A DNA stretch of 64,000 bases from Karstenula rhodostoma CBS 690.94. Taxonomy: Eukaryota; Ascomycota; Dothideomycetes; Pleosporales; Didymosphaeriaceae. The position numbers and the translations under genes were made by a program. The DNA lies in the NCBI GenBank assembly GCA_010093485.1, contig MU001496.1, positions 586,685-650,684 on the forward strand. Reading direction: 5' to 3'. The notes under the pieces are model-generated. The model saw only the letters and a list, made by a program, of their open reading frames with translations, did no database searches and was not told the DNA's origin. This document shows positions 15,693 to 64,000 of this stretch, piece by piece; position 1 is the stretch's first letter; each line of letters begins with the position of its first letter.

Positions 15693-17657
15693 GTTGTGTG
15701 TAGGTTTGCTTGCGAAGGTTCGCTTGAAGAGGGTTCTGTGTAGGGGATTCGTGGTGGGGTTTGTGGTTTGTGGTCTGAGGTATTTGGGTATGAGTGTGAA
15801 CAAAGGTGTACGGACGTATTTATGCAAAGTTATGCACCCTTGCGCGTGACCGATAAGAGCCTTGGTCAATGGTTGAGCACCACCGGAGGCGGACGAGGTG
15901 GTGAGGGGTGACGTCACCGAGGGGCTTGGAGGCTAGAATTGTTGGGGAAGGTGGGGCTCAGAGCTCAATGTTCGGAATGGCAGGCGCAACCGAAGTGAAG
16001 TCTTAAGCGAGCAAGACATCTATTGTCGTGCCTGACAAGCCAGTGTTACTGTTAGCGATCAAATCCCTCTAATCGAGGGAGATGAACAAGGACATAGATA
16101 ATGTGGGGACGTTCATAGAGAAGCTCCAGTTGTGTCGATGTGCTCTGACTGCTTGTTACATACCCTGGTACCCTCCCAGTCACAGCTTCGCCACACTCAA
16201 CAACCTGCATGAGCCTGGAGCGCTGCCTAGTATGTGCGAAACGGTGGGAACCCAAGGAGATATACTCCTTCCTCTTTCAGGCATAACATACGTTTCTCCT
16301 CGTACGAGACGTCCTGACTACTTTGGTGAGCCCTCAAGATTACAGTTCTGTTCTTATCGATTGCATCGCTGGTATACCCCTCCGTGAGTTGATCATTCGC
16401 TTCTGTTGCGTTGTCTCAAATCCCGTGGACTGTTTGAACCAGAACATCCATCTCCACGGCGTGAATCCAGTTGGCGATCGCTTTCCAAACTCTGGCTTTA
16501 CGAACATTCGGCCACTGTCCAAATGTGCTTTGGCGATCAATACATGGAACGACCGAGAGCAGAACTGGATTGTGACCAGCCTCTTTGATCCCTGTACAGG
16601 CGGCGGAAAGTAGTTTCTCGATTCCAAGGCTTGATATACTGCGATGCGTATCTTCAGCATCGTAAGCTGGCAGTAGACGTACCACAGGGAGCGAAGGTAG
16701 CTTTCAAGAGAGTCTACTCCGTCCCCGATTCTGCAGTATCGTTCGGTTATAGAAGGCTTCTCCTCGAACTTCCCCGAGCTCGCCAGGAGCGATGCATTCG
16801 CGCCTGTCTTGCTGATCTAGAGCCGTATCGTCTGCCATGGTGAGCTCAGGTGGATCCTTTGGAGAAGGTCCGAGCAGTCTATCCCGAAGATGGTGCATGT
16901 TGAGGTAGCTTGCTTCGGTTGATTGATTAGCTGAGTAAGATCGAACTATAATGCTACCATTAATGTCACCATGTGTTTGGATACAATCCCATTGTTGAAG
17001 GATGAGCTTTGTGAGGTGCCAGCCTGTGAACAGCCTGCCTAGAATTACTCTATGAAAGAATTCTAATCAATCTCCCTAGTCCAGATCATTATCTTTGCTC
17101 GGCAAGGCCCCAGGAAGATGTATGTGCCCGTGGCATGTAAGGAACGGTTTACTTTGTAACTAAACCTGTGGTTATTTTCGAAATTCATCTGTCCAGCGTA
17201 AATAGGCAGGACCAACAGAGTCTTACAAATTATTCGACTATTCGCGTAGTCAGACTCGTTACTGAAGTGTGCTGTGTTGCGTGCAAAGCTTTTATCTTCG
17301 GAGCCGAGCCACTGGCGGGGGTACCCGCCCCGCACACAACACGGGATTTTCACACATTCCCCAGGTCTCTGGCAAGGACCACCAAATGTCTGTATATGCG
17401 GCGAGAGGGGGCTGTTTTGATAGTATAATAGCTCTGCTAGATTTGATCTTCTTATTTTCATGGAGTTTATCTGTGTATGGAAAAGACGTTGCAATAAGCC
17501 TAGCTTCCTACCCAGGTTTTAGTGAGCGATCTTCGGCAGAAGTCGATTTACTCTACCCCACTCTGAGTTCAGTTGGCTAGTCCAGCTGGCCTGACGCAGC
17601 ACGCTTTTGTGCGTATATAAATTGCAAATTTCAAAAATGTGCATCAAATCCTCCAAC
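15693..17657. other. Long intergenic region without a recognisable gene
   Basis: Nearly 2 kb between the I78 gene and the tRNA gene. Several 60-145-codon frames occur on both strands, but none has a signal peptide, family motif or consistent exon chain. A plus frame near 16323-16613 has ordinary composition and may be a gene remnant. No terminal repeats were found. Confidence 0.35.
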
Positions 17658-17805
17658 GGTGAGATGGCCGAGTTGGTAAGTCATACGAACCCCATGTGTT
17701 CACTTCAATGTACTAATAGTCCTAGGTTATGGCGCCAGGTTAAGGTTCTCTTAACACTAATTCCTGGTCACGTAAGTGGCGTGGGTTCGAGTCCCACTCT
17801 CATCA
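17658..17805 (+). tRNA. tRNA-Leu(AAG) with an anticodon-loop intron and a D-loop insert
   Basis: Removing two inserts gives an 82-nt Leu-type cloverleaf. The acceptor stem is GGTGAGA (17658-17664) with TCTCATC (17798-17804) and discriminator A. The D-stem is GCC with GGC (17731-17733). The anticodon stem is CCAGG (17735-17739) with CCTGG (17763-17767), anticodon AAG at 17742-17744. A long class II variable arm (CAC/GTG) is present. The T-arm is GTGGG-TTCGAGT-CCCAC. The 16-nt intron 17746-17761 is at the canonical 37/38 position and contains CTTAA, which can pair with the anticodon loop. The second insert, 17676-17725, splits the D-loop. The A-box (TGGCCGAGTTGG) and B-box (GGTTCGAGTCC) are intact, and a T6 run follows. 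The gene may look broken to standard tRNA finders. Confidence 0.85.
17676..17725 (+). other. 50-bp insert in the tRNA D-loop with spliceosomal-intron signals
   Basis: The insert begins GTAAGT (17676-17681), has TACTAAT at 17711-17717 and ends CTAG at 17725. Exact removal restores AGTTGGTTAT, a normal Leu D-loop. A GGT triplet is repeated at both borders, so the excision point is ambiguous by up to three bases. The same borders would also fit an insertion with a 3-bp target duplication. Confidence 0.7.
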
Positions 17806-18229
17806 CTATCGTCCGCTCAGTTGAGCGGATTTCGGGAGTTACTTTTTTGCTTTTTCGCTCAGTATTTGTGAGCTAGCTGTGCGGTGCAGTAGATAGGTAC
17901 TTCTTGCACGTGTTAGAACTCGATTTTAGTTCATGGGGGGAAGAAATAACTCGGGCACTGCTATAGATCGATTGTTGAGTCTTCGCGCGCTTTTGCAAGC
18001 CGCGGACTGCTGTAGGTACAGCAGCACACTGCTAGGAGGTAATGCCAAATAGAAATGAGTAGCGTTTTGTTACTCCCTCATTATATATCCTGGTAACTTA
18101 CACTCAAATACCTGTTTAGTCCGTAAAACGGTTCTTTAGCTGGGAAGGAGGCAAGGCCTTGCTTACTGACGGAGACATTGTTGGTGTGTGGCGTGTGATT
18201 TCGGTTGTTAGCTATCTATCTTAGGTCAT
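17806..18229. other. tRNA downstream region, two short hairpins
   Basis: Directly after the tRNA there is an inverted repeat, CCGCTCA/TGAGCGG (17813-17828). Further on, ctgctgta/tacagcag (18008-18025) can form an 8-bp hairpin. No gene is seen. Confidence 0.4.
17843..17848 (+). terminator. Likely Pol III terminator (T6)
   Basis: Six T residues lie 37 nt after the tRNA 3' end, just past the 17813-17828 hairpin. Runs of this kind end Pol III transcripts. Confidence 0.6.
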
Positions 18230-57770: not shown

Positions 57771-60700
57771 ATGTCCTCCCCCGACACTCCCAACACCCAC
57801 CGCCGGAGCCAGACACAACAGTCAATACCCTTGCGCGACCTCCACCGCCCGCCGGACGAGCACCATGGAGAGCCGCAGCAGGGGCCGCAGCAGCATCGCA
57901 GGACCCTGAGCGACCGCGGACGGCAGCTGCTCAGACACTCTGGATCGCTGGCTTCGGGACAGCCCTGGAACTCGCAGTACGCACCCATCGCCGAGACGTC
58001 GCCCAGCCCAACCCGCGCCCGCACCCGCGGACGCCCCCAGGTCGACACCGCAGCCGGCGCATCGCGACGCCCGCCACCTGTCAACGAGGATGGCGACTAC
58101 TCGCCCGTGGACATCGGCGCGTTCCAAGCTGCCATCGGCTTCTCAGGGCTGGCCTTCCAAGGCGAGACATCCCCGCCTCTGGGCCCTCCTGCGACGTCCT
58201 CACGGCCATACCCCCAATACGGCAGCGACCCTTATCTGAGCAGGAGCACCTCGGAGGATAACAGCTTCTTTGCTGCATCCTCCTACGACGACCGGGACAC
58301 GGCACACTTGACTGATGCGCGCAATCTCCAGCCTGTAGCCGGTGTCGCAGCATCCCTTCCCACCACACCAGGCAACCGTGCCAGCTTCCAGAGCGTGCGA
58401 TTCCTCACACCGGGCGGATCCACCACGGGCCCAGGCCTGGGGCACGATCTCGAGCAGCATTCGCCGGGTGGCCTCCGGACGTCGACCGGTCGGAAGCGGT
58501 CGCTCTCCCCCGGCAGCATTGAGTCGCCGCTGCACCGCGCAGGGACCATAATGCGGAACATGTCCCAGCGTGTCGTCAACATCAGTAACGAACCTGAGAT
58601 TGCCGAGCGGACTATGCGCAGGAAGTCGTCAGTGCGCCCCCCTCAAGATCGCCTCCAGGAGCCGCCTTCGTTTCCAGCACTGCCAACATACCTTCATGAC
58701 GGTCCTTCTTCTCCGCTCGCCTCCCCAATCGAAAAGCCACCCTCGCCAATCGAGTCTGCAAAACGCAGCGCCCAGTGGCAACACCCGTCAAATCCTTTCC
58801 GTGGGAGGTCACTGGGCATCTTTGGCCCGGACAACAAGCTGCGCTTAAAGCTCAGTGACCTCTTAGTCCACCCTGTTACCGAACCATTGCTCCTCCTGCT
58901 AATCATCGTTCAAACTGTGCTGCTTGCCGTGGATGCAAGCAAAGACGTATACATCTACCCTAGGTCCAAAGAATGGGGATCCAACGATATTGATTATGCA
59001 ATACTGGGGCTGTTCGTTGTCTACACTGTCGAGACCATCGTTCGAATCATTGTGTCAGGCTTCATCATCAACGCTCCTGAATACAGTACCATCAACAGGC
59101 AGGTCAGTTTTAGACAGGCCGTTCTTGGAAACGCACGCAAGCTGTTCGGGCCTCAGCGACAGCCGTCGATCAAGCGTGCCGAAACTAGCATCGAGCATAT
59201 TCCCTCCATCTTCCGAACCTTCACAACCGCTCAAGTCAATCCATCCATTGGCCCTGGAAACTCGAGAGAGAAGCAACGCGCCCGACTCGCGTACCGGGCG
59301 TATCTCCGTCACTCTTTCAACAGGACCGATTTCGTAGCTGTCGTCTCATTTTGGATTTCGTTTGTTCTTGGCCTCACTGGCGTCGAACATGACAGACACA
59401 TATACATCTTTAAGATGTTAAGTTGCTTGCGCATTATCCGGCTGCTCAACTTGACGAGTGGTACCGCAGTCATCCTGCGGAGTTTGAAGAAAGCGGCGCC
59501 TTTGCTTGTGAATGTTGCCTTCCTGATCAGCTTTTTCTGGCTCCTCTTTGCCATTGTGGGTGTCCAGAGCTTCAAATCGAGCTTCAGGAGACATTGTGTC
59601 TGGATCGATCCTCAAGGCCTGAGCAATTTCACGAACGAAGGGCAGTTCTGCGGTGGCCATCTCGAAAACGTACCCGGTTTTCATCCTCAACCTTATATTC
59701 CAGCCCCGGGAATGCCAGAGGGGACCGTCAAAGGATTCCTTTGCCCGAAAGGATCGCTGTGCATAGAAGGTACAAACCCTTACAACGGCACTCAGAGTTT
59801 CGACAACATTCTGCAATCCCTGCAACTAGTCTTCGTAATCATGACCTCGAATACGTACTCCGACTTGCTTTTTACCATCGCCGATAGCGATTATCTCATA
59901 GGCGCGCTGTTCTTCGCTGGTGCAATCCTCATTCTGAATCTCTGGCTTATATCGTTGCTCATCGCGGTCATCACATCATCGTTCCAGATCATACGTGAAG
60001 AGAGCAAAACAAGTGCTTTCACTGGAGAACAGATAGAAGAGGAAGATCACGACAATCTCCCAAAAGAACGCGTAAGCAACCTGAAAAAGCTCTATGAGAG
60101 GACTTCCTGGGTTTGGATCCTGATAATCTCTTATGAAATCATCGCCCAGGCCTTGAGAAGCGCAAACATGTCGCCTTCACGCGCCAGGTTTATAGATAGG
60201 TCGGAGATTGGAGTCACTTTCTTGTTACTGCTTGAGATCATCATTCGGTTCATCGTTGATTGGAGACACTTCTTCAAGAGCAAGCAGAACATTACAGATC
60301 TGCTCATCGCAATCATCACAGCAGTAATACAAATTCCAGCAATCAAAGAGTCCCATGGCGGACGGGCATACGCCTGGCTCTCCATCTTCCAGATCATCCG
60401 AATCTATCGAGTCGTCTTGGCCGTACCGATGACGCGTGAGCTTATTGTAAGTTACATTTCTCCTCGTCTTCGTCGACTACTAACCTCGATAGATGATCGT
60501 CCTTGGCAATGTTGGCGGTCTGCTCAACCTGATCCTGTTCGTGTTCCTACTGACGTTCCTCGCGTCTATTTTTGCGGCACAGCTCTTTCGTGGGGAGATT
60601 CCGGCCGACCAAGATGGGGAGACCCTTGTGATATCCTTCTTCACGATATATAACTCTTTCCTCGGGATGTACCAAATACTCTCCAGTGAAAATTGGACTA

Positions 60701-63700
60701 CTATAATGTACAGCGTCACCACTTCCACGGTAACATGGGGATCTTCATGGATCGGAGCCACGTTCTGTATCATCTGGTTCATCTTTGCAAACTGTACGTT
60801 GCCCCGCCGTCGGTTACAACTGCGCTGACCAGGAGAACAGTCATCGTCTTGAACATGTTCATTGCTGTCATTCAGGAAAACTTCGACGTCTCTGAAGACG
60901 AGAAGCGCCTGCAGCAGGTCAAGGCGTTTCTGCAAAACAAGGAGCAGGGGTTCACTTCATCTGATGGGTACGTCACTTATTGCTATGCAGGATTCAGGCT
61001 AAATTATGCAGGAACCTGTCGCTCTCCTCCATCTTCAAGTTGGGCCAAGCTAGCCGGAAAGATCCGTTGGACTACGGATCCGCTGCTACAGAGATGCTTC
61101 TTAAGGATGCTGTAGTTCGGGACTTTCTCGATGACCGGGACGATAGTCCACACGAAGATGAACCGCAGCCCGGTATTCGATCGGCACCAACGATCATCGG
61201 ATCGGGGATCGTGTCGACATTCTGGCAGCGTGTCCAGCGGCGAATCAGCAACCGAGAGCCGAACCCATTCTACGCCCCTCTCGACTTTGGACGTGCTTAC
61301 GAAGATCTCGATCCCAGGAGGATGGCAAAAGAGGTAGTCGATGCGACAGAAAAGAGGAAGAAGGCACAACGCGACTATCTCCGGAAACATCCGAACTACA
61401 ACGTCTCCCTTTTCATGTTCAGGCCCTACAACCCGGTCCGCAGATTCTGCCAAAAGATTGTGGGCCCAGGTCGTGGCAAAGATCGTATGGAAGGTGTTAC
61501 CCCATCGGTGCCCATCTGGTACACGTTCTCTGCTTTCATCTATGCCGCTATCATTGCAATGGTTCTTCTCGCCTGCGTAACGACACCTTTGTATCAGAGG
61601 GAGTATTTCAAAACTCACGAATTCAGCGTCCGCAATTGGTTCGTGTGGACAGATCTAGGCTTTGCTGTCTTGTTCACTGCGGAAGCATTGATCAAGGTCA
61701 TTGCGGACGGCTTCCTGTTTACGCCCAACGCATATTTCCGAGGCTCTTGGGGGTTTATTGATGGTGTAGTGCTCACCACGCTTTGGATCAACGTAAGCAC
61801 TTCGTTGCTCAACGAGGGCCAGATTACTCGCACCGTAGGCGCTTTCAAGGCCCTACGTGCTCTACGTCTCCTCAACGTCAGTGATAGCGCACGGAATCAT
61901 TTCCATTCCCTTATTGTCCGCGGCTGGTGGAAACTGATTTCGGTACGATTTCCAACCATCTTCGTATCGCATTGCTAACATTTTTAGGCCGCTTTCGTCT
62001 CTCTGAGCTTGCTCATCCCCTTTGCCATTTACGGGCTGAACCTCTTCGTAGGACGTATGCAATCGTGCAATGACGACGGCTCGGGTATCTTTGATTTGCA
62101 TGACTGCGTCAATGAGTACGACAGCAATCCTTACAACGACGAGTGGAACGTCCTTGCCCCACGCCGGGCGTCTAACCCGCCCTACGATTTCGATAACTTC
62201 GGCAACTCGCTCTTCATCCTCTTCCAAATCGTGTCGCAAGAAGGATGGATCGACGTCATGTGGGCATCTGAACAGATTACCGGCGTATTCACCCAGCCAT
62301 CGCCATTCGCTTCTCAAGGCAACGCTGTCTACTTCGTCATATTCAACTTGCTCGGCGCCGTCTTCGTGCTGACCCTCTTTGTATCTGTCTTCATGCGCAA
62401 TTATACAGAACAGACTGGAGTTGCTTTCCTCACCACAGACCAGCGATCGTGGCTTGAGCTGAGGAAACTGCTACGTCAAGTTTCGCCTTCGAAGCGACCT
62501 TCCTCAACAAAGGTGCGAGAGACATGGGAAGAGTGGTGCTACCGGCGTGCTGTCCGCAAGACTGGCGGTTGGCAACGGTTCATAACAGGGCTGTTGCTTG
62601 CTCACCTGGTCCTTCTTTGCCTAGAGTGGTACCCCAATCATGGCGTATGGGAACAAGTACGCGACTATATCTTCCTCCTGTTCACAATCGTGTTCATCGC
62701 CAACGTGGTCATTCGGATCATTGGTCTATCCTGGCATCGGTTCCGCAAAAGCTCTTGGGATGTGTTTTCGATCTTCGCAGTATCTGGAACTTTTGTCACT
62801 TCGATCCTTCGGTTGACTAATAGCAGCGAACGAGTCTTCGCTCAACTCCATAAGCTGGGGTTGGTGTCGATTGCTCTACTTCTCATACCCAGGAACAACC
62901 AACTGGATCAACTCTTCAAGACGGCCGCGGCAAGTTTGGCATCCATCATGAACCTCCTGGCCACTTGGTTCGTACTCTTCTTGGTATACGCTATCGCTCT
63001 CACCCAGACCTTCGGACTGACGCGGTTTGGCGAGAACGAGACAGGGAACATCAACTTTCGAAGCGTTCCAAAAGCCCTCATTCTCCTCTTCCGGACCAGC
63101 ACTGGTGAGGGCTGGAATGAGCTGATGGAAGACTTCGCGGCGATCGATCACCCCTACTGCACCGAAGGAGAGAGATACTTTGAAAGCGATTGCGGCAGCC
63201 CAGAATGGGCACGTGCTCTGTTCGTTACCTGGAACATCCTGAGCATGTACATCTTCGTCAATCTTTTCGTGTCTTTGATATACGAAAGTTTCAGCTACGT
63301 GTATCAGCGAAGCAGTGGACTGTCGGTCATCAGCCGAGAAGAGATTCGTCGCTTCAAGCAGGCCTGGGCCGAGTTCGACCCTAACGGCACCGGTTTCATT
63401 TCCAAAGACGCGTTCCCTCGGTTGCTGGGAGAGCTCTCCGGCATCTTCGAAATGCGGATCTACGACGGCGACTTCACCGTAGGTAGTCTGATCGAAGAGT
63501 GCAGCACAAACTCCAGGAGAAACTCAGGGCTACCCGTCCAAGGCCAGAAGGAGCCTGTCACTATCGACATCAAGAAACTCAACCGACGGTTGGCTGAGCT
63601 TCCCATTGCCGAGATCCGACGTCGGCGACAGCGCATGAACACCTTTTACGAGGAAGTAATAGTATCGAGTGATCATGACCGAGGCATCCAATTCACTTCA

Positions 63701-64000
63701 CTACTTATGATCTTGGCTCATCACAAGGTTATTAATGATAATAAGAGCTTAAGGTAAGGATCCGGAGGCCCTCAAGTACACACGTTGCTAATACATGATC
63801 TCAGATTAGAGGAATTCCTCCGACGCCGAGCACGCCTACAACGAGTGGAAGAGGCTGTGCGGCGAAATGTCGTTATTGGATTTTTCGACACTCTCTACTG
63901 GGCACGGAGATTCCGTCGCGCACAGCAGCAGAAGGAGCACGGCCGTATGACTGCTGTACCCCAGTTCAGAGTACCCGAGATCTTCATCGACGATGAAGAT
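57771..64000 (+). CDS. CCH1: Voltage-gated calcium channel alpha subunit Cch1, 3' end beyond window
   Basis: The gene model is join(57771..60446,60493..60793,60841..60967,61012..61942,61988..63753,63805..>64000), 1999 codons in view. A disordered N-terminus of about 355 residues precedes four homologous six-helix domains starting near 359, 776, 1197 and 1537. Pore loops are VIMTSNTYSDLLF (I, about 690), LSSENWTTIMY (II, about 956), IVSQEGWIDVMW (III, about 1428) and STGEGWNELMEDF (IV, about 1716). The selectivity positions are thus Asn-Glu-Glu-Glu. An EF-hand-like segment (AEFDPNGTGFISKDAF) follows domain IV near 1800. With Mid1, Cch1 forms the high-affinity calcium influx system of the plasma membrane, acting in stress, mating and hyphal growth. 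Voltage-sensor helices carry fewer Arg than animal channels. The last exon is still open at 64000. Confidence 0.93.

What the first reader, a model, noticed from the sequence alone, without database searches (positions are those of the whole stretch)
17658..17805. tRNA-Leu(AAG) gene with a spliceosomal-looking intron in its D-loop, besides the canonical intron
The sequence shows a complete Leu cloverleaf only if two inserts are removed. One is a normal 16-nt anticodon-loop intron with CTTAA able to pair with the anticodon loop. The other is a 50-bp insert between the two D-loop G residues, starting GTAAGT, with TACTAAT nine to ten bases before a terminal CTAG. Canonical eukaryotic nuclear tRNA introns sit only at position 37/38 and are cut by the Sen endonuclease. 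A D-loop insert with mRNA-intron signals in a gene with intact A- and B-boxes would mean that a Pol III transcript is spliced by the spliceosome, that an unknown processing route exists, or that the gene is recently broken. The insert follows the A-box directly and only lengthens the A-B box distance, so transcription could survive.
Basis: partly seen in the sequence, partly recalled or inferred. Interest (0 to 1): 0.87.

Follow-up and report, generated by a model that had tools for sequence, protein, structure and literature searches.

The report
tRNA genes carrying mRNA-type introns
In a fungus that by protein similarity likely belongs to the Pleosporales, at least 13 transfer-RNA genes, among them all six copies found of one leucine tRNA family, are interrupted outside the normal tRNA intron site by segments of about 50 bases that carry the signals of messenger-RNA introns, and these would likely have to be removed by the spliceosome, a machine not known to splice tRNAs.

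Summary
Window 17658-17804 is a tRNA-Leu(AAG) gene with a canonical 16-nt anticodon-loop intron (17746-17761) and a 50-nt D-loop insert between G18 and G19 (17676-17725). It is not a one-off. All six Leu(AAG/CAG) genes found in the genome carry a D-arm insert, at three different sites. Pro(AGG), Glu(TTC), Ala(CGC) x2, Gly(GCC) x2 (T loop) and one initiator-Met gene (38/39) carry such inserts too: 13 of about 81 tRNA genes read, at eight sites. For 11 of the 13 the empty site is known from another gene and the GT-AG cut restores it exactly; the two Ala cases rest on a weaker comparison. The 13 inserts are 48-53 nt, begin GTRNGN, and have CTAAN with the A 9-11 nt before a terminal YAG (CTAAY in 12), like mRNA introns in the same window. 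None of 12 tested forms a bulge-helix-bulge helix. Leu genes without the insert are 80-98% alike, their inserts 53-71%. Best reading: spliceosomal introns in Pol III tRNA genes, several gained after the genes duplicated, probably removed by the spliceosome alongside Sen removal of the canonical intron. No RNA data were available and no relative's genome could be searched.

The parts
17614..17621 (+). TATA-like element upstream of the tRNA gene
   Evidence: TATATA at -44; TATA-like sequence in 10 of 12 insert-bearing genes, 45 of 59 insert-free tRNA genes, 75 of 1428 control 60-mers
17658..17675 (+). exon 1 of tRNA-Leu(AAG): acceptor 5' strand, A box, D stem 5' strand, up to G18
17676..17725 (+). 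D-loop insert between G18 and G19: spliceosomal-type intron, 50 nt, GTAAGT...TACTAAT...CTAG
17676..17681 (+). 5' splice-site motif GTAAGT
17711..17717 (+). branch-point motif TACTAAT, branch A at 17716, 9 nt before the last base of the insert
   Evidence: shuffle control
17724..17725 (+). 3' splice-site AG
17726..17745 (+). exon 2: rest of D arm, anticodon stem 5' strand, anticodon AAG (17742-17744), G37
17746..17761 (+). canonical tRNA intron at 37/38, 16 nt; CTTAA complements the anticodon loop
   Evidence: such a complement in 5 of 6 Leu genes (L006 has no exact complement of 3 nt or more)
17762..17804 (+). exon 3: anticodon stem 3' strand, variable arm, T arm with B box (17784-17794), acceptor 3' strand
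17843..17848 (+). T run, likely Pol III terminator
   Evidence: T run within 60 nt in 12 of 12 insert-bearing and 58 of 59 insert-free genes
60447..60492 (+). mRNA intron in an ion-channel (Cch1-like) gene, used as yardstick (46 nt, GTAAGT, CTAAC, TAG)
   Evidence: placed by eye from reading-frame continuity
60794..60840 (+). mRNA intron, yardstick (47 nt, GTACGT, CTGAC, CAG)
   Evidence: placed by eye from reading-frame continuity
61943..61987 (+). mRNA intron, yardstick (45 nt, GTACGA, CTAAC, TAG)
   Evidence: placed by eye from reading-frame continuity
63754..63804 (+). mRNA intron, yardstick (51 nt, GTAAGG, CTAAT, CAG)
   Evidence: placed by eye from reading-frame continuity

Best explanation
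The 50-nt D-loop insert is an intron with complete mRNA-type splice signals that is predicted to be cut out of a Pol III tRNA-Leu precursor by the spliceosome, while the second, canonical intron of the same precursor would be cut by the Sen endonuclease. Shown by sequence: the gene with both inserts; GT-AG boundaries that restore an uninterrupted homologous junction; a CTAAY branch motif at a near-fixed distance; the same architecture in 12 further tRNA genes of the genome, at eight sites in all; and no insert-free Leu(AAG/CAG) gene found. Inferred: transcription by Pol III (TATA-like element, internal boxes, T run), excision as a lariat by the U1/U2/U4-U6/U5 machinery, and an order in which spliceosomal removal happens in the nucleus before or apart from Sen cleavage. 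Also inferred: the introns were gained after the tRNA genes duplicated, because paralogues with and without the intron, and with it at different sites, occur in one genome.
For: (1) All six Leu(AAG/CAG) genes found carry a D-arm insert, at 18/19 (four genes), 24/25 (L005) and 10/11 (L006); each site is uninterrupted in another Leu gene. (2) Pro(AGG) 20/21, Glu(TTC) 13/14, Ala(CGC) 25/26 in two genes, Gly(GCC) 60/61 in two genes, initiator Met 38/39. Glu, Gly and iMet have insert-free copies in the same genome and, for each of the four inserts read there, a single cut position, which is GT-AG. (3) Signals are uniform: 48-53 nt, GTRNGN, CTAAN with A 9-11 nt before the end, YAG, in 13 of 13. CTAAY is seen in 11 of 12 against a shuffle mean of 1.4 and maximum of 6 in 20,000 trials. 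(4) Four mRNA introns of an ion-channel gene in the window have similar length (45-51 nt) and motifs, branch distance 9-13. (5) A motif search led to a further case: 4 copies of GGTTCGATTGTGAGT were found; the one fetched is a Gly(GCC) gene with branch site and AG in place, and all 4 lie on Gly(GCC)-like matches. (6) Leu genes without the extra insert (canonical intron still in) are 80-98% alike pairwise, their inserts 53-71%. (7) No bulge-helix-bulge: 0 of 12 with a 4-bp central helix, shuffle mean 2.3. (8) Precedents: spliceosomal introns in Pol I rRNA of lichen fungi, one of which yeast removes too (PMC8527467, passages), and an mRNA-type intron in Pol III U6 of fission yeast (PMC10484740, passages).
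Against: No RNA evidence of any kind was available. The two U6 genes found here are uninterrupted, so splicing of another Pol III transcript cannot be pointed to in this species. L006 has CTAAG rather than CTAAY. Inserts at 10/11 and 13/14 interrupt the A box and T-loop inserts abut the B box, so those copies may be poorly transcribed. For the six Leu and two Ala genes the junction is not unique: 2-6 cut positions fit, one of them GT-AG in each. Leu 18/19 in four genes, Ala 25/26 in two and Gly 60/61 in several are probably inherited by duplication, so the 13 are not 13 independent gains. The T-loop motif search as a whole gave fewer hits (24) than its control (37). An insert-free Leu(TAG) gene exists (L061, L084) that might read other CUN codons by wobble (recalled from yeast), so removal is probably, not certainly, essential. 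A Val(CAC) copy at C4:727116 that looked like a further T-loop case is a fragment without GT.
Confidence: 0.87

Rival explanations
1. The inserts are ectopic tRNA introns cut by the tRNA-splicing endonuclease through bulge-helix-bulge structures, as in archaea, Cyanidioschyzon merolae and nucleomorphs.
For: Introns in the D and T arms and at several sites are known from those organisms and some were shown to be excised (PMC4090602 and PMC3978253, passages). Many Guillardia theta introns lack a defined BHB, so absence of the motif is not a full exclusion.
Against: 0 of 12 inserts have a 4-bp central helix in any of nine bulge registers, shuffles give 2.3. GT-AG ends, CTAAN and the 9-11 nt spacing have no role in that pathway (established knowledge). 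The Guillardia theta inserts are 3-24 nt, these 48-53.
Confidence: 0.05
2. The insert-bearing genes are dead or dying copies that have trapped introns, and other genes supply the tRNAs.
For: Insert-free copies exist for Glu(TTC), Gly(GCC) and initiator Met. A decayed Gly(GCC) copy and a Val(CAC) fragment show that tRNA gene decay does occur here.
Against: No insert-free Leu(AAG/CAG) gene was found. CTT, CTC and CTG are 205 of 299 Leu codons in five ORFs of the window. The rest of the Leu genes stays alike while inserts differ but keep splice motifs. TATA-like element in 10 of 12 and T run in 12 of 12.
Confidence: 0.05
3. The precursors are spliced by the spliceosome, but only when they are made as Pol II read-through transcripts, and the Pol III transcript is a by-product.
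For: Spliceosomal introns are normally tied to Pol II transcription (stated in PMC8527467); A-box interruption in L006 and L058 could weaken Pol III.
Against: Upstream TATA-like element and T run are as in insert-free tRNA genes, and internal boxes are intact in most of the genes. Fission-yeast U6 shows that a Pol III RNA can be spliced.
Confidence: 0.08
4. The inserts are group I or group II introns or another self-splicing element.
For: [quoted passage not shown]
Against: 48-53 nt is shorter still, and GT-AG with CTAAN is not a group I feature (established knowledge). Rfam has no intron match in the window at gathering score or at E up to 10 in 17600-17860; the other 12 genes were not scanned for it.
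Confidence: 0.01

Closest known systems
Spliceosomal introns in nuclear rDNA of ascomycetes (Bhattacharya et al. 2000, seen only as cited in PMC8527467)
   Same: short spliceosomal introns (the one quoted is 57 bp) in a structural RNA gene not transcribed by Pol II; fungal host; the quoted intron is removed by the yeast spliceosome when placed in yeast rDNA
   Different: There: Pol I rRNA. Here: Pol III tRNA genes of about 120-150 nt, exons as short as 10-12 nt, and mostly a second intron of a different kind in the same gene
mRNA-type intron of U6 snRNA in fission yeast (Tani and Ohshima 1989, 1991, as cited in PMC10484740)
   Same: spliceosomal intron inside a Pol III transcript
   Different: U6 is itself part of the spliceosome, and its intron is thought to come from reverse splicing near the catalytic bases; tRNA is not. 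The U6 genes found in this genome are uninterrupted
Ectopic tRNA introns of C. merolae and nucleomorphs (PMC3978253, PMC4090602)
   Same: eukaryotic tRNA genes interrupted in D and T arms, some with several introns
   Different: BHB-type or undefined, 3-24 nt in Guillardia theta; GT-AG and branch motifs are not mentioned in the passages seen
Canonical eukaryotic tRNA introns (Sen type)
   Same: present in most of the same genes at 37/38
   Different: position, length and signals of the extra insert
Introner-like elements of Dothideomycetes and other Pezizomycotina (PMC4457414, PMC9860276)
   Same: recent spliceosomal intron gain in related fungi
   Different: introners are multi-copy and alike; these inserts are not clearly alike, and the main text of those two papers does not contain the word tRNA

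Membership tests
U2-type spliceosomal intron | GT at the 5' end and AG at the 3' end | tested here: met
   13 of 13 have a fitting GT-AG cut; it is the only fitting cut in 5 (Pro, Glu, Gly x2, iMet), one of 2-6 in the other 8
U2-type spliceosomal intron | 5' splice-site hexamer as in the host's mRNA introns | tested here: met
   GTAAGT 6, GTATGT 2, GTGAGT 2, GTACGT, GTAAGG, GTAAGC 1 each; four mRNA yardsticks GTAAGT, GTACGT, GTACGA, GTAAGG
U2-type spliceosomal intron | branch motif CTRAY at suitable distance | tested here: met
   12 of 13 CTAAY, 1 CTAAG (L006), A 9-11 nt before the end
U2-type spliceosomal intron | excision by the spliceosome with a lariat | not testable with these tools
   needs RNA
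Canonical Sen-type tRNA intron | position 37/38 | tested here: not met
   sites 10/11, 13/14, 18/19, 20/21, 24/25, 25/26, 38/39, 60/61 (tRNA numbering assigned by hand). The iMet site is one base away from the canonical one
Canonical Sen-type tRNA intron | anticodon-intron pairing | not tested
   tested only on the separate canonical introns of the six Leu genes, 5 of 6 have it
BHB-type ectopic tRNA intron | 4-bp central helix between exon end and intron end | tested here: not met
   0 of 12, shuffle mean 2.3; L165 was not in this test
Group I / group II intron | conserved catalytic core | tested here: not met
   no such Rfam match at gathering score over the window or up to E 10 in 17600-17860; done for the window gene only
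Introner / introner-like element | many near-identical copies in the genome | tested here: inconclusive
   3 of 66 pairs of inserts exceed all 100 shuffles (about 0.7 expected), two of them Leu-Leu, one Leu(L006)-Pro(L028) with 37 of 53 columns alike; the genome was not searched with the inserts alone

The most novel reading that the evidence does not exclude
A eukaryote whose translation depends on the spliceosome at the tRNA level: Pol III precursors of at least six amino-acid classes, including every Leu(AAG/CAG) gene found and one initiator-Met gene, carry spliceosomal introns in the D arm, at the anticodon stem or in the T loop, so that one tRNA is spliced by two unrelated machines, and such introns are still being gained, as paralogues with and without them show.
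Probability: 0.8. Interest if true: 0.95.

Novelty: new variant of a known kind. Interest (0 to 1): 0.9.

Why it matters
Textbooks separate mRNA splicing (spliceosome, Pol II) from tRNA splicing (Sen endonuclease plus ligase); [quoted passage not shown] If confirmed, this genome joins the two in one molecule. It makes direct tests possible: whether the spliceosome needs a cap or Pol II tail for natural substrates, how short an exon can be (10 nt plus leader, 12 nt plus trailer), whether spliceosomal and Sen cuts are ordered in space, and how new spliceosomal introns arise, since paralogous tRNA genes with and without the intron give exact empty sites. It also points to a blind spot: in the passages seen, tRNAscan-SE 2.0 describes its noncanonical-intron search for archaeal tRNAs (PMC8450103). 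ARAGORN finds none or misreads those insert-bearing genes that it was given, and the capped Rfam search of the genome listed only 2 of the 13, iMet and one Ala.

Tried and rejected
Rejected: a broken single gene (all six Leu genes found have inserts); Sen/BHB excision; self-splicing intron; chance GT-AG. The fixed-length mismatch test gave a GT-AG cut among its best for 5 of 12 genes only; it put the cut elsewhere in 7 (five Leu, two Ala), where D loops differ in length or the reference differs in sequence. One search replaced it with exact junction strings. For the two Ala genes that string was chosen from their own sequence with Ala(AGC) as a guide, so it is weaker. A suspected T-loop intron in Val(CAC) at C4:727116 is a truncated fragment. 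Of two partial Gly(GCC) matches one is a decayed copy, one (C7:227220) was not read. U6 is uninterrupted. An elongator-Met gene (L163) shows no extra insert by eye.

Led nowhere: RF00005 over the genome scored only 62 of 1177 candidates and the 1512-nt exon query only 40 of 86, so neither is a full inventory. The GTTCRANNC pattern gave 10,173 hits against 10,744 in its control. GGTTCAANNCC with a T run gave 18 against 17, and its 18 loci used letters to no gain. Exact 25-mer scans of prokaryote and viral contigs gave nothing, as expected for a fungal gene. Phe, His, Leu(TAA), Pro(TGG), Thr(CGT), Val(TAC) and a certain Tyr gene were not identified; the census is incomplete. Relatives' genomes could not be searched: none are held for this genome.

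Rows dropped before counts: seven scanner hits that are not ordinary tRNAs (L050, L093-L097, L124) of 85 were left out, giving 78; to these I add by hand L016, L142 and L165, hence 'about 81'. The TATA and T-run counts of insert-free genes use 59 genes with enough flank, identical copies merged. L165 is not in the shuffle, TATA or BHB tests.

Full report
What was checked. Window 17658-17804 was read directly. It holds a tRNA-Leu(AAG) gene only if two segments are set aside: 17676-17725 (50 nt, in the D loop between G18 and G19) and 17746-17761 (16 nt, canonical 37/38 intron whose CTTAA complements the anticodon loop). ARAGORN at default found nothing in the window, Rfam nothing at gathering score, and at lax threshold the tRNA family scores 15.8 bits against 29.

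The genome. The window lies in a 44.3-Mb, 29-contig assembly. The SNF5-domain ORF of the window is 95% identical over 55% of the query to a protein of Didymosphaeria variabile and 80-86% to those of several other fungi that I know as Pleosporales (recalled, not looked up), so the host is likely a member of that order. No relative's genome could be searched.

All Leu(AAG/CAG) genes found have it. A search with the whole gene found six places, the window's included; reading them showed an insert in the D arm of all six. Four (L001, L002, L004 AAG; L003 CAG) have it at 18/19. L005 (AAG) has it at 24/25 and L006 (CAG) at 10/11. Each site is uninterrupted in another Leu gene, so the empty site is known for each.

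Other tRNA genes have it too. A scanner that asks for an acceptor stem, a T8/A-box start and a T arm, not for GT or AG, was run over the loci held. It gave 85 distinct hits, 78 after leaving out seven odd ones; with the two initiator-Met genes and L165 about 81 tRNA genes were read. Besides Leu, inserts outside 37/38 occur in Pro(AGG) (L028, 20/21), Glu(TTC) (L058, 13/14), Ala(CGC) (L092 and L143, 25/26), Gly(GCC) (L002 minus strand, T loop, 60/61) and initiator Met (L142, 38/39, listed by Rfam and read). Glu(TTC) L048, Gly(GCC) L062 and iMet L016 are insert-free copies. ARAGORN gave some parse to every other ordinary hit, in places with an evidently wrong anticodon; I did not check each of these by hand, so further inserts among them are not excluded.

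Boundaries. For each of 12 genes I listed every segment whose removal yields an uninterrupted junction string. For ten genes the string comes from another gene. Pro, Glu, Gly and iMet have one solution each, and it is GT-AG. The Leu genes have 2-4 solutions, and exactly one is GT-AG in each. The two Ala genes, where the string is taken from their own sequence with Ala(AGC) as a guide, have 5-6 solutions, one GT-AG each. L165 has one solution, GT-AG. An earlier fixed-length test gave GT-AG among the best cuts for 5 of 12 only, because D loops differ in length and the Ala reference differs; I regard as the proper test.

Signals. Lengths 48-53 nt; 5' ends GTAAGT (6), GTATGT (2), GTGAGT (2), GTACGT, GTAAGG, GTAAGC; CTAAY in 12 and CTAAG in 1 of 13, with the A 9-11 nt before the last base; YAG ends. 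With interiors shuffled, CTAAY at 6-30 nt before the end occurs on average in 1.4 of 12 genes and in at most 6 in 20,000 trials; observed 11 of 12. Four introns of an ion-channel gene in the window (Pfam Ion_trans; the name Cch1 is recalled) at 60447-60492, 60794-60840, 61943-61987 and 63754-63804, placed by eye from reading-frame continuity, are 45-51 nt with GTAAGT/GTACGT/GTACGA/GTAAGG, CTAAC/CTGAC/CTAAC/CTAAT and branch distance 9-13. The tRNA inserts look like mRNA introns of this fungus; four yardsticks are few, and choosing GT-AG was part of placing them.

A forward test. If T-loop introns recur, the motif GGTTCRANN followed by GTRNGT should find more. It gave 24 hits, fewer than its control of 37, but four shared one 15-mer, GGTTCGATTGTGAGT. 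The one fetched (L165) is a Gly(GCC) gene with a 52-nt insert, single GT-AG solution and CTAAT at 10. A Gly(GCC) search gave eight matches: five coincide with T-loop splice-motif hits (two read in full), one is insert-free, one is a decayed copy, one partial match was not read.

Function. Leu genes minus the extra insert (canonical intron still included) are 80-98% alike in pairs, the inserts 53-71%, which fits selection or gene conversion on the tRNA parts and drift inside the inserts, with splice motifs kept. TATA-like sequence lies upstream of 10 of 12 insert-bearing genes, 45 of 59 insert-free ones and 75 of 1428 control stretches; T runs follow 12 of 12 and 58 of 59. CTT, CTC and CTG make up 205 of 299 Leu codons in five ORFs (stop to stop, so slightly impure) of the window. 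A broken-gene reading is therefore unlikely. An insert-free Leu(TAG) gene exists and might cover some of the need.

Which machine. A bulge-helix-bulge would need a 4-bp helix between the exon end and the intron end: 0 of 12 have it, against a shuffle mean of 2.3. The Sen ruler acts at 37/38 (established knowledge). Forty-eight to 53 nt is below even the 56-81 nt of the smallest putative group I introns (PMC3160393, abstract in listing). The spliceosome remains, and the signals are complete. Steps not shown: transcription by Pol III, excision, lariat, use of the mature tRNA.

Origin. Different sites in paralogues and the presence of insert-free copies point to several separate gains, up to eight sites. 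The inserts are not clearly one family: 3 of 66 pairs exceed all of 100 shuffles (about 0.7 expected), two Leu-Leu and one Leu-Pro (L006-L028, 37 of 53 columns). Introner-like elements are known in Dothideomycetes (PMC4457414, abstract in listing), but the main text of that paper and of a later survey (PMC9860276) does not contain the word tRNA. The two U6 genes found are uninterrupted.

Literature. Ten searches of the open library listed no paper that I recognised as reporting spliceosomal introns in tRNA genes; the exact phrases tried occur in none of the 20 papers listed of 67. Subscription journals and preprints are mostly not held, so this is not proof of absence. Seen as passages only: PMC8527467 (rDNA spliceosomal introns; yeast removes one from Pol I rRNA), PMC10484740 (U6 intron), PMC3978253 and PMC4090602 (ectopic tRNA introns; the second has no word beginning 'spliceosom'), PMC4494063, PMC9860276, PMC11782384, PMC13149111 (review), PMC8450103 (tRNAscan-SE), PMC8476143. 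In PMC4457414 a word search only.

Verdict. It is a new variant of a known kind (spliceosomal introns in non-Pol II genes) in a class of gene where these searches showed no report of it.

Noticed in passing
C9:1051339-1054257 of G000 (L093-L096), also L097 (C9:1086119-1086599) and L050: Several tRNA-like units of 200-240 nt with A box and B box and acceptor-like ends, four of them within 3 kb; perhaps tRNA-derived repeats or long-intron tRNAs.
   Followed up: no
L164 (C15:395950-396150, minus strand): tRNA-like gene with a 58-nt anticodon-loop insert of uncertain identity (ARAGORN calls it Glu-CTC).
   Followed up: partly
L062 minus strand, about 250 nt upstream of the Gly(GCC) gene (C6:747113-747169): Decayed Gly(GCC) copy with a broken T arm beside the insert-free gene.
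   Followed up: yes
L162 (C4:727040-727240): Truncated Val(CAC) copy less than 1 kb from the intact gene; the match stops inside the T arm.
   Followed up: yes
G000, tRNA genes: Many tRNA genes have a canonical anticodon-loop intron, including Ala, Gly, Lys, Glu and Asp; not counted.
   Followed up: no
C3:1527927-1528462: Two U6 genes in convergent orientation about 330 nt apart, both matching the whole U6 model without a gap for an intron.
   Followed up: partly
C6:1020796-1021061: Three tandem tRNA-like 3' ends (AGTTCGAYTCTGGAAGCGGAGA) about 110 nt apart, possibly Tyr; not read for lack of letters.
   Followed up: no
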